Assembly: GCA_009663185.1 (NCBI GenBank)
Contig: VJZX01000001.1
Coordinates: 124,001 to 188,000 of the forward strand
Length of the DNA stretch: 64,000 nt
Direction: 5' to 3'
From: Isoptericola halalbus
Lineage (GTDB): Bacteria; Actinomycetota; Actinomycetes; Actinomycetales; Cellulomonadaceae
The position numbers and the translations under genes are program-made. The notes beneath the pieces were generated by a model. It was not told where the DNA came from, did no database searches, and saw nothing but the letters and a program-made list of their open reading frames with translations. Below, in pieces: positions 25,304 to 60,865 of this stretch; position 1 is the stretch's first letter, and every line of letters starts with the position of its first letter.

Positions 25304-25363
25304 GCGCTACCTCGCCGAAGAACGCGCTACCTCGGCGAAGAATGCGCTACCTCGACGAGAGGT
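25304..25363. repeat. 20-bp-period array, copy 1 (3 units)
   Basis: CTACCTCG cores start at 25307, 25327 and 25347, exactly 20 bp apart; units read GCGCTACCTCGCCGAAGAAC, GCGCTACCTCGGCGAAGAAT and GCGCTACCTCGACGAGAGGT. The last core contains, on the minus strand, the AGG-TAG end of the ABC-F gene. The array fills the whole gap between convergent genes. Confidence 0.85.
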
Positions 25364-26987
25364 CGAGGACCGGCCAGTCGGCGAGGTCGGCACGCATCCG
25401 CCGGTCGTGCGTGGCGACGACGACGGCGGCGGGAGTGACCTGCAGCGCGCGGGTGAGCTCGTCGACGAGGTCGATCGACAGGTGGTTGGTCGGCTCGTCG
25501 AGCAGCAGCAGGTGCGGCGCGTGCAGCAGCGCCCGCGCGAGCTCGAACCGCCGTCGCTGACCCGCGGACAGCTCGACGAGCCGCCGATCGAGGTCTTCCT
25601 CGGTCAGCAGCCCGAGCGCCGCGACGGGCACCAGATGGTCCGGGTCGAGCTCCCCGCGAGCGAGCAGCGCCAGCGCCTCGGCGGCGTACGCGTCGAAGCC
25701 GGACTGCGTGCGTGCGTCGCCCGTGATCGGCTCGCCCTCCTGCCCGACGACGCCGAGGCGCGCCCCCGTCACGGCCGACCGGGCACCGCGCGAGAGCTCG
25801 AGCCGCCCCGCGAGCGCCTGCAGGAACGTCGACTTGCCCGTGCCGTTCGGCCCGACCACGAGCAGCCGGCCCGACGGCGGCACCGCCACGCGCGTGCCCG
25901 GCAGGTCCAGCCGTACGCGGCCGTCTGACGCGACGACGCGCGGCGAGCGCAGCTCGACCAGCGGCTCGGCCGGGTCCCACCCCGGTGCCATCGCCGGCAG
26001 GTCTGGGAACGCGAGCTCGAGCGGCGGCACGGGAACCTCGACGGCCTCCGCCTCGAGCTGCTGCACGAGCCGGTCGGCCGCCTTGACGTGGATGCGGGCG
26101 CGCGTGGCCCGCCGGTGCGCCTGCGATCCCTTCGGCGGGCGCCACTCGTCGGACAGCCCCTCGTAGGCCGCGTCGAGCCGCTCGGCGAGCCGCTGGGCCC
26201 GCTTCCGCTCCGCGCGGTAGCGCTGGCGCCAGCGGTGCAGCGCCTGGTTCTTCGCGAACCGGTAGGACAGGTACCCCGGCTGCCCGTAGAGCACCGGGCG
26301 CCCGTCCATGGACGGGTCGAGGTCGAAGATCGCCGTGGCGACGTCGTCGAGCAGCTCGCGGTCGTGCGTGACCAGGACGACGCCGCCGTGCCATGCCACG
26401 AGCTCTCCCGTGAGGAAGTCGATCGCGGAGTCGTCGAGGTGGTTGGTCGGCTCGTCGAGAAGGAGCAGGTCCGAGCGCTCGGCGAGCCGGCACGCGAGGC
26501 GCACGCGGTAGCGCTGCCCGACGCTGAGCGAGGCGAGCGTCCGGTCGCGGTCGCGTACCGCCCCGAGCCGGGCGAGCGCGACGTCGACCCGCCGGTCCGC
26601 GTCCCACGCCGCGAGGTGCTCCACCTTGGCGAGCATCGCCGCGAGCTCGCCGAGGTCTCCCGACTCGTGGTCGAAGGCGGCGGCCGCGGCCTCGAGCTCG
26701 GCCGTCGCCTCTCGGAGCCCCGCAAGCGTGGCGGTCACGAGGTCCCCGACCGTCTGCCCGGGCGCTACCTGGAGCTCCTGCTCGACGAGCGCCACGCTCC
26801 CCGACCGCCGCGCCTCACCGCTCTGGGGCGTCAGGTCGCCGGCAAGCAGGTGCAGCAGCGTCGACTTGCCCGAGCCGTTCTCCCCGACGACGCCGAGGCG
26901 GACGCCGTCGGACACGCGCACCTCGACGTGCCTCAGGACAGGGCGACCCGGGTAGGCGAAGGCGAGGTCGGACGTGACGAGGTGCAC
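25347..26987 (-). CDS. ABC-F family ATPase (antibiotic-resistance or ribosome-protection type)
   Basis: 546 residues with two ABC domains and no membrane segments. Domain 1: GENGSGKST, LSVGQRYRVRLACRLAE and DEPTNHLDDSAID. Domain 2: GPNGTGKST, LSAGQRRRFELARALLHA and DEPTNHLSIDLVDE. The linker with RYRAERKRAQRLAERLDAAY is charged. ABC-F members act on the ribosome; this subgroup includes proteins giving resistance to ribosome-targeting drugs, but no substrate can be assigned. The GTG at 26987 is chosen because AGGG lies 8 nt upstream and longer starts run into the hairpin at 27012. The TAG stop belongs to the first unit of the 20-bp array. Confidence 0.85.
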   Translation of the reverse strand: MHLVTSDLAFAYPGRPVLRHVEVRVSDGVRLGVVGENGSGKSTLLHLLAGDLTPQSGEARRSGSVALVEQELQVAPGQTVGDLVTATLAGLREATAELEAAAAAFDHESGDLGELAAMLAKVEHLAAWDADRRVDVALARLGAVRDRDRTLASLSVGQRYRVRLACRLAERSDLLLLDEPTNHLDDSAIDFLTGELVAWHGGVVLVTHDRELLDDVATAIFDLDPSMDGRPVLYGQPGYLSYRFAKNQALHRWRQRYRAERKRAQRLAERLDAAYEGLSDEWRPPKGSQAHRRATRARIHVKAADRLVQQLEAEAVEVPVPPLELAFPDLPAMAPGWDPAEPLVELRSPRVVASDGRVRLDLPGTRVAVPPSGRLLVVGPNGTGKSTFLQALAGRLELSRGARSAVTGARLGVVGQEGEPITGDARTQSGFDAYAAEALALLARGELDPDHLVPVAALGLLTEEDLDRRLVELSAGQRRRFELARALLHAPHLLLLDEPTNHLSIDLVDELTRALQVTPAAVVVATHDRRMRADLADWPVLDLSSR

Positions 26988-27011
26988 CCGCACCACCCTA
27001 TCGACGCCGAA

Positions 27012-27061
27012 GGCGGAGCCTTCGCCCACCCGTTCCCAGTGAGGTGGGCGAAGGCTCCGCC
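27012..27061 (-). terminator. long hairpin after the symporter gene
   Basis: GGCGGAGCCTTCGCCCACC pairs perfectly with its complement at 27043-27061 around a 12-nt loop (CGTTCCCAGTGA). It lies 12 nt past the symporter stop and 24 nt before the ABC-F start, so it probably ends the symporter transcript. It has no T-run. Confidence 0.65.
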
Positions 27062-27073
27062 GCGGCGCCTGGG

Positions 27074-59605: not shown

Positions 59606-60529
59606 TCAGCCCTCCCGTCCGGCGCGGGTACGGCCGTGCTCGGCGAGGACCTGCTGCACGACGTCGTATGCCGGGTCCTGCGACGACGCCGGGTGCGGGA
59701 CCGCCTCGGCGGCACGCGCGGCGGCGGCCTCGGCCGCGCGCTCGGCCTCGATGTCGGCCGGCTCGGGCGACACGCGGATCTGCGGCTGGTTGCGTCCGGG
59801 GGCGTCGAGCACCGGGGTGCTGCCGATCTGCGGCAGGATCGACTCGCGCTCGCCGTAGGCGCCGATCGCCTCGTCGCGCACCACGACGCCGGTCGAGAGC
59901 TCGACGACACGCTTGCGCATCTCGTTGACGATCTCGTCGTCGTGCGTCGCCATGACGACCGTGGTGCCGGTGCGGTTGATGCGGTCGAGCAGGCGCATGA
60001 TGCCCAGCGACGTCGTCGGGTCGAGGTTGCCCGTGGGCTCGTCGGCGAGGAGGATCTGCGGCCGGTTGACGAACGCGCGCGCGATCGCGACGCGCTGCTG
60101 CTCGCCACCGGACAGCTCGTGCGGGCGCCGTTTCTCCTTGCCGTCGAGACCGACCATCTCCAGGACCTCGGGCACCGTCGTCTTGATGGTGTGGCGGGGA
60201 CGGCCGATGACCTGGAGGGCGAACGCGACGTTCTCGTAGACGGTCTTGTTGGGCAGCAGCCGGAAGTCCTGGAAGACGACGCCAATGCTGCGGCGCAGCG
60301 ACGGCACCTTCCAGCTCGAGATGGTCGACAGGTCGCGGCCCGCGACGTAGACCCGGCCGGCAGTCGGACGCTCCTCGCGCAGCACGAGGCGCAGGAACGT
60401 CGACTTGCCCGAGCCGGACGCGCCGACGAGGAAGACGAACTCGCCGCGCGCGACATCGACCGTGACGTCGTCGAGCGCAGGCCTCGCCCCACGGGCGTAG
60501 ACCTTCGAGACGTTCTCGAACCGGATCAC
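59606..60529 (-). CDS. ftsE: cell division ATP-binding protein FtsE with C-terminal extension
   Basis: 307 residues. The ABC part has [10 protein letters not shown] (36-44), [15 protein letters not shown] and [13 protein letters not shown], and ends near residue 228. The remaining 80 residues (Glu/Ala/Arg-rich, containing [19 protein letters not shown]) have no counterpart in the usual 220-230-residue FtsE. The ABC domain drives conformational change of FtsX. GTG start with AGGAGG. The gene is 345 nt from prfB across a stretch holding two 20-bp arrays. Confidence 0.94.
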
Positions 60530-60660
60530 GAGTGCCCCCTCCTCGCACTGCCCCACCTGACCGGGAGCGGTGTTCTCGCCGATCGAGCGTCGCACGCTGG
60601 CGGGTGAGGTCAGGCGGAGGACACGCCGGTGTGTCGCGGGTCGCCCGCTTGCCCCGAGCA

Positions 60661-60760
60661 ACCCCAAGTAGAAAGAATTCCGCCGAAGTAGAACGGACTC
60701 CGCCGAGGTAGAACGCGCAGCGCCGAGGTCGAACGAGTTCCAGCGAGGTAGAACGCCTGA
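60661..60760. repeat. 20-bp-period array, copy 4A (5 units)
   Basis: Five units with an exact 20-bp period, in the opposite orientation to other copies on this strand: cores CCAAGTAG, CGAAGTAG, CGAGGTAG, CGAGGTCG and CGAGGTAG at 60664, 60684, 60704, 60724 and 60744. Unit 3 is CGCCGAGGTAGAACGCGCAG. The outer units are more divergent. Confidence 0.85.
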
Positions 60761-60805
60761 CGACAGCGGCATCGCGGGACGCGCTTCTCACTCGGCCACA
60801 CGGCC

Positions 60806-60865
60806 ACTACCTCGGCGGAAGAAGTCCTACCTCGGCAGAAACGCTTCTACGTCGCGGCCGGCGGC
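60806..60865. repeat. 20-bp-period array, copy 4B (3 units, inverted)
   Basis: Cores CTACCTCG at 60806 and 60826 and the variant CTACGTCG at 60846, exactly 20 bp apart, inverted relative to copy 4A and separated from it by 45 nt. The last unit lies 10 nt before the prfB stop codon on its 3' side. The inverted pair could fold as one long imperfect hairpin. The remaining 130 nt to ftsE show nothing else. Confidence 0.8.

What the first reader, a model, noticed from the sequence alone, without database searches (positions are those of the whole stretch)
25304..60865. Dispersed arrays with an exact 20-bp period and CTACCTCG core
Five arrays of 3-5 units (25.30, 43.10, 50.99, 60.66 and 60.81 kb) share the core CTACCTCG-[GACT]-CG (CGAGGTAG on the other strand) while the other 7-8 bases vary. 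Spacing is exactly 20 bp in all five. All are between genes. 20 is not a multiple of 3 and the arrays carry stops in several frames, so they are not protein repeats. Units differ in flanks (GCGCTACC, TTCTACC) between arrays but less within, suggesting local copying. A period of nearly two helical turns fits a protein binding one face of DNA, like iterons, but no candidate binder is seen.
Basis: partly seen in the sequence, partly recalled or inferred. Interest (0 to 1): 0.85.

Follow-up and report, generated by a model that had tools for sequence, protein, structure and literature searches.

The report
Gene-end DNA arrays in helical register
A soil-type bacterium related to Isoptericola carries scores of short DNA arrays that begin at gene stop codons, repeat every 20 base pairs and often face each other at whole turns of the DNA helix, as if an unknown protein binds there to mark or wall off gene ends.

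Summary
The arrays are real and genome-wide. The window's genome holds 98 core pairs at a 20-bp step against 0 for the reversed pattern. The exact core pair occurs in 11 of 18 congeners and 0 of 20 other genomes. A degenerate core finds arrays in 14 of 18 congeners and in some other genera of the family. Some congeners use another core, CGAGTCAG.

Arrays sit mostly at gene 3' ends. Where the stop lies inside a sense array, it is in the first unit in 53 of 65 cases. Two inverted arms usually face each other around a palindrome or terminator-like hairpin. Gaps between facing cores repeat at about 10.2-10.3 bp, one DNA turn (81 gaps; jitter null 0 of 5000). Spacers diverge while the 20-bp step holds (98 of 108). 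This points to a protein binding one DNA face. No binder was found.

Searches found no Y1 transposase or reverse transcriptase in 18 congeners, no target duplications, and no Rfam match on six loci. Against a purely DNA-level reading, arms are complementary beyond the cores.

Best reading: cooperative binding arrays, probably gene-end barriers (function inferred). Rivals: REP-like repeats; RNA hairpins.

The parts
25307..25354 (+). Array of 3 exact CTACCTCG units at 20-bp steps. Read on the minus strand (CGAGGTAG) it runs outward from the 3' end of gene 25347-26996(-). The last unit contains that gene's TAG stop.
24728..25300 (+). Convergent neighbour gene, DUF4916
25347..26996 (-). ABC-type ATPase gene with two ABC_tran stretches; its TAG stop is inside the array
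43103..43150 (+). Array of 3 exact units. The last unit contains the TAG stop of gene 43143-44105(-).
43143..44105 (-). ROK-family gene ending in the array
50992..51039 (+). Array of 3 exact units between divergent gene starts (50972(-) and 51111(+)). An exception to the 3'-end rule.
60664..60751 (-). Left arm: 5 units at exact 20-bp steps, 2 exact (60704, 60744) and 3 degenerate (60664, 60684, 60724). The matrix scan reports 4 of them.
   Evidence: degenerate units read from the printed sequence
60752..60806 (.). 55-bp gap between the facing arms, close to the 10.3-bp register
60807..60854 (+). Right arm: 2 exact units and 1 degenerate unit (CTACGTCG at 60847), 20 bp before the stop of gene 60875-61990(-)
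60875..61990 (-). Peptide chain release factor gene (PCRF and RF-1 domains) whose 3' end faces the right arm

Best explanation
The arrays are sets of binding sites for an unidentified sequence-specific DNA-binding protein. Sites lie 20 bp apart on one face of the helix. Two inverted arms usually face each other a whole number of helical turns apart, so bound proteins could touch along or across the element. Arrays begin at or within a few bases of the stop codon. The bound assembly most likely acts as a barrier at gene ends that limits transcription running into the convergent or following gene, and may also hold supercoils there. Shown here: the arrays, the step, the helical register, the gene-end position, the inverted pairing, and different cores in congeners. 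Inferred: that a protein binds, that it is cooperative, and that the function is a barrier.
For: 98 core pairs against 0 for the reversed control. The 20-bp step holds in 98 of 108 successive exact cores 9-32 bp apart in this genome, 29 of 29 in G001 and 295 of 332 in the named loci (29 of the rest are at 21), while consecutive spacers are often only 4-8 of 12 identical. Facing gaps under 100 bp repeat at 10.2-10.3 bp: 59 gaps, R 0.571, jitter null 0 of 20000; 81 gaps, best period 10.2 of those scanned from 5 to 30 bp, jitter null 0 of 5000; 41 gaps of 18 bp or more, best period 10.3, null 1 of 5000; this genome alone (20 gaps) null 13 of 5000. Position: of 77 distinct arrays here, 42 are within 25 bp of a gene 3' end in the sense direction, 5 antisense, 2 near a 5' end. 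Density per intergenic kb is about 3.2 convergent, 0.9 tandem and 0.2 divergent (39, 34 and 5 arrays in 12.3, 38.8 and 21.3 kb). Core plus flank differ between congeners. Sites near the stop would lie under a terminating ribosome at the RNA level, which suits DNA binding better (inference).
Against: No binder was identified and no expression or binding data exist. Arms are complementary beyond the cores: first spacer 0.616 against 0.379, gap edges 0.688 against 0.438, which a binding array does not need. Register is not perfect (R about 0.5), and many loci share ancestry, so the gaps are not all independent; the named loci and the G handles overlap in species. Opposite-order pairs in G010 and G001 have gaps of 0 or 15, and 15 does not fit the same register. 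In G010 orientation at gene ends is mixed, and the orientation bias of stop-containing arrays partly follows which strand of the core holds a stop codon. Four of 18 congeners have 0-1 matches, so the arrays are dispensable.
Confidence: 0.42

Rival explanations
1. REP- or MITE-like selfish repeats: a palindromic element spread by an enzyme acting in trans, surviving mainly at gene 3' ends because insertion there is harmless.
For: Dispersed, inverted-arm, gene-end distribution. The menA junction carries arrays in 3 of 15 congeners and none in 12. Similar inner palindromes recur at 4 Krasilnikoviella loci. Each lineage has its own core and flank, and presence is patchy.
Against: Y1 transposase (REP-associated and IS200 type) in 0 of 18 congeners, while the control genomes ring in 5 of 14. 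Reverse transcriptase in 0 of 18, controls 3 of 14. No flanking direct repeats above the null in 25 elements, 4.76 against 4.64. Spacers mostly differ between loci, and the register and the stop-codon anchoring are unexplained. Other transposase families were not searched.
Confidence: 0.25
2. An RNA-level element: the arms form long hairpins in the 3' end of the transcript and act as bidirectional terminators or as protection of the 3' end; the core is an RNA-binding motif.
For: Arms and gap edges are complementary above the null. Long gaps in many printed loci hold a GC-rich hairpin (judged by eye, not counted). Arrays lie after stop codons in the sense direction.
Against: Helical phasing of gaps has no reason in RNA. 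Cores stay invariant where pairing alone would allow change. First units overlap the stop codon. One-armed arrays exist (25.3, 43.1 and 51.0 kb in the window). No Rfam match in six array loci, 108 kb.
Confidence: 0.2
3. Neutral local growth: a site straddling a stop codon was multiplied by slippage and fold-back copying, with no function.
For: Identical neighbouring units occur (one search list). Spacers are more alike within arrays than between, and complementarity fades with distance from the centre. A homologous stop position carries the core in G000 and G001 and a plain TGA in G008, with the same protein length of 465 aa.
Against: The same core at 58 places with mostly unlike spacers, the kept 20-bp step and the register need a common constraint.
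Confidence: 0.1

Closest known systems
REP/BIME/REPIN extragenic palindromes
   Same: Dispersed, extragenic, inverted pairs able to fold, lineage-specific sequences. REPIN features from passages of PMC3116915; gene-end location and gyrase binding of BIMEs are recalled.
   Different: No transposase of the Y1 family in 18 congeners; tandem 20-bp units, not one palindrome per unit; helical register.
TAACTGA direct repeats of Beggiatoaceae
   Same: A short invariant core in sets of direct repeats at many intergenic places with no known binder (PMC4679880, abstract and passages).
   Different: Those are head-to-tail heptamers, mostly just upstream of start codons; these are 20-bp units anchored at stop codons with inverted arms.
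Plasmid iterons
   Same: Direct repeats near 20 bp, a spacing that suits one-face protein binding (recalled).
   Different: Dispersed to 58 places at gene ends, not gathered at one origin.
Sal-box arrays bound by TTF-I at eukaryotic ribosomal RNA gene ends
   Same: Works-like comparison only: repeated protein sites just after a gene's 3' end that stop polymerase (recalled).
   Different: No homologous protein is claimed; these are bacterial and lie at many genes.
Intrinsic bidirectional terminators
   Same: Between convergent genes, palindromic centre.
   Different: Conserved core, 20-bp repeats, register, no required T-run.

Membership tests
REP/REPIN | REP-associated (Y1) tyrosine transposase in the genome | tested here: not met
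   PF01797 in 0 of 18 congeners; controls ring in 5 of 14
REP/REPIN | Inverted doublets able to form a hairpin | tested here: met
   36 facing pairs in this order, 0 in the reverse order in this genome; complementarity above null
MITE | Target-site duplication next to the element | tested here: not met
   25 two-arm elements, longest shared flank word 4.76 against null 4.64 +- 0.21
Plasmid iterons | Array confined to an origin beside a replication initiator gene | tested here: not met
   58 chromosomal places; the eight window flank genes are not replication genes. Other flank genes were not annotated.
TAACTGA repeats | TAACTGA heptamer arrays upstream of start codons | tested here: not met
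   Core is CGAGGTAG, step 20, mostly at 3' ends
Protein-binding array on one DNA face | Same-strand and inverted sites in helical register | tested here: met
   20-bp step and 10.2-10.3 bp gap period; opposite-order gaps of 15 do not fit
Protein-binding array on one DNA face | A protein that binds the core | not testable with these tools
   No candidate found
Described RNA families (Rfam 15) | Match above gathering score over an array | tested here: not met
   Six array loci, 108 kb: only two tRNAs. The window itself was not scanned.
Transcription barrier or terminator | Transcripts end at the array | not testable with these tools
   No transcript data

The most novel reading that the evidence does not exclude
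A dedicated gene-end barrier system in bacteria: a fast-evolving DNA-binding protein assembles on 20-bp arrays that start at the stop codon and stops or insulates RNA polymerase at convergent and tandem gene ends, a bacterial counterpart in function of protein-dependent polymerase terminators. Core and protein change together between species.
Probability: 0.25. Interest if true: 0.88.

Novelty: new variant of a known kind. Interest (0 to 1): 0.62.

Why it matters
Dispersed extragenic repeats are usually explained as hairpins or as debris of mobile DNA. Here geometry gives evidence at the DNA level: a fixed two-turn step, facing arms at whole turns, and a start at the stop codon, repeated over tens of loci and several species with different cores. 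If a protein reads these arrays, bacteria would have a protein-based way to mark gene ends, and the different cores of close relatives would make coevolution of protein and site directly testable.

Tried and rejected
RAYT/IS200 mobilisation: PF01797 in 0 of 18 congeners. Reverse-transcriptase spread: PF00078 in 0 of 18. MITE insertion: no flank duplications in 25 elements. Known RNA family: none in six loci. Phage origin: ten viral contigs with one match each, not followed up. Orientation as a purely functional signal: weakened, because in G010 all 6 stop-containing arrays are antisense and use the TGA of CTGACTCG, while the GT-core species use TAG in the sense direction. Conservation of position between the GT-core window genome and TC-core G010: 2 shared, 4 G000 only, 3 G010 only, 18 neither, not convincing. 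Between G000 and G001: 3 shared, 0 G000 only, 3 G001 only, 26 neither (Fisher p about 0.004, worked by hand). Core type on a single-gene menA tree is interleaved, but one gene with low support and an outgroup placed inside the ingroup cannot date the switches. Binder search by gene co-occurrence was not possible without whole proteomes.

Full report
What is there. They belong to a family of 98 exact core pairs at a 20-bp step in the 4.10 Mb genome, against 0 for the reversed pattern. By my clustering of that list they lie at 58 places. I fetched 47 stretches around them, 764 kb with the window. Same-strand cores up to 400 bp apart are 20 bp (98), 40 (36) or 60 (9) apart, and no other distance exceeds 6. 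CGAGGTAG precedes CTACCTCG in 161 pairs and follows it in 5. At the level of arrays, 36 facing pairs occur in this order and 0 in the other. A fitted matrix gives 145-156 pairs against 0 in simulated sequence.

Where they sit. I had no annotation, so I wrote a simple codon-usage gene caller; its starts and ends are unverified. Of 90 arrays with at least two units, 39 lie between convergent genes, 34 between tandem genes, 5 between divergent genes and 12 overlap a called gene. The intergenic DNA available was 12.3, 38.8 and 21.3 kb. These stretches were chosen because they hold arrays. By a stricter rule, 77 distinct arrays were classed by nearest gene boundary: 42 lie within 25 bp of a 3' end in the sense direction, 5 antisense, 2 near a 5' end. 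In 105 named loci the same classes are 62, 14 and 5 of 157.

Stop codons. In this genome 21 arrays contain the stop of the adjacent gene, all TAG, 16 in the first unit and 5 in the second. In G001, G007 and G008 it is 12 and 3, in the named loci 25 and 4 plus one antisense. TAG is only 19.4% of stops in the sample. Where the stop precedes the array, sense still leads but less: 33 to 16 here and 51 to 24 in the named loci. G010, whose core is CGAGTCAG, behaves differently: 6 arrays contain a stop, all antisense, using the TGA of CTGACTCG. So part of the orientation bias follows which strand offers a stop codon. One orthologous gene has the same length, 465 aa, with the core at its stop in G000 and G001 and a plain TGA in G008; other orthologues differ by a few to 19 residues.

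Helical register. Gaps between facing cores cluster near 4, 13-14, 23-24, 33 and 44-45. For 59 gaps under 100 bp the best period is 10.2-10.3 bp, R 0.571, and none of 20000 jittered sets reached it. With gaps worked out from coordinates for G016, G004 and G007 the set is 81, R 0.544 at 10.3, best period 10.2 of those scanned from 5 to 30, jitter null 0 of 5000. For gaps of 18 or more (41) the best period is 10.3, R 0.489, null 1 of 5000. This genome alone (20) gives null 13 of 5000, and G016, G004 and G007 (22) 29 of 5000. Gaps of 100 or more were dropped. A looser set of 36 pairs in this genome, with degenerate units, gave R 0.429 at 10.25. Limits: the named loci and the handles overlap (G008's first contig has the length of Isoptericola halotolerans NZ_PVTX01000001.1), and several loci of one species share a gap by descent. 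Opposite-order pairs in G010 and G001 have gaps of 0 (four seen) or 15 (three seen); 15 does not fit.

Spacing against sequence. Successive exact cores 9-32 bp apart are 20 bp apart in 98 of 108 cases here, 29 of 29 in G001 and 295 of 332 in the named loci. Spacers between them are mostly unlike. This is what a spacing constraint gives (inference).

Palindromes. In 72 two-arm elements the first spacer of the arms matches as an inverted repeat at 0.616 against 0.379 between loci, the gap edges at 0.688 against 0.438 (66 elements), the second spacer only 0.421 against 0.368. Long gaps often hold a GC-rich hairpin (by eye). This supports an RNA hairpin or fold-back copying and is the main evidence against a purely DNA-level reading.

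Relatives. The exact pair occurs in 11 of 18 congeners and 0 of 20 other genomes. With CGAGNNAG as core, 14 of 18 congeners have 17-294 matches and four have 0-1; among 221 genomes of the family one other genus (g25) has 3-40 in each of 17 genomes, and two further genomes have 44 and 66. In one genus several genomes hold a CGAGCGAG family, where the reversed control also rings, so its counts are uncertain; G229 has 234 with 75 in the control. Elements of Cellulosimicrobium and Oerskovia show two inverted pairs, often with a 13-bp gap (24 of 105 loci viewed). G010, G013 and G002 use CGAGTCAG-like cores. At the menA junction arrays are present in G000, G001 and G007 and absent in 12 other congeners. 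Genus identity is inferred from names and the contig length above.

What makes them. No Y1 transposase or reverse transcriptase in 18 congeners, and no flanking duplications in 25 elements. Identical neighbouring units show local duplication. Rfam finds nothing in six loci.

Explanation. Shown: arrays, step, register, position, pairing, differing cores. Inferred: a protein reads the core, probably cooperatively, and forms a barrier at gene ends. I put 0.42 on this. REP-like repeats, an RNA element and neutral local growth remain. Literature searches found no description; nearest are REPINs (PMC3116915, passages) and TAACTGA repeats (PMC4679880, abstract and passages).

Noticed in passing
window 60664-60854: The two-arm element lies between a release-factor gene (PCRF and RF-1 domains, 60875-61990) and an ABC ATPase gene (59606-60529).
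   Followed up: partly
window 50992-51039: Array between divergent gene starts beside an HD and LuxR-type regulator gene (51111-52697), against the usual 3'-end position.
   Followed up: partly
window 55878-56245: tmRNA gene with tag ADNKRTDFTLAA; the longer call at 55304-55972 looks like a false second match.
   Followed up: no
G062, G080, G087, G107, G113 (one search list): A family with core CGAGCGAG, 20-bp step and often a 41-bp step to the inverted copy; relation to these arrays is not proven and the reversed control also rings.
   Followed up: no
G229: 234 matches of the degenerate pattern, with 75 in the reversed control; nature not looked at.
   Followed up: no
L030, L035, L078, L093: Similar 12-bp inner palindromes (TGG-C-GG-CCA type) at four Krasilnikoviella loci, which suggests copying or a second conserved site.
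   Followed up: no
L001 11-218 and L047 2057-2264: Short 20-bp-step repeats with CTACCTCG or CGAGGTAG in a deltaproteobacterial and a myxobacterial contig, perhaps chance.
   Followed up: no
L284, L304, L325: Opposite-order pairs with a gap of exactly 15 bp in G010 (two) and G001 (one); unexplained.
   Followed up: partly
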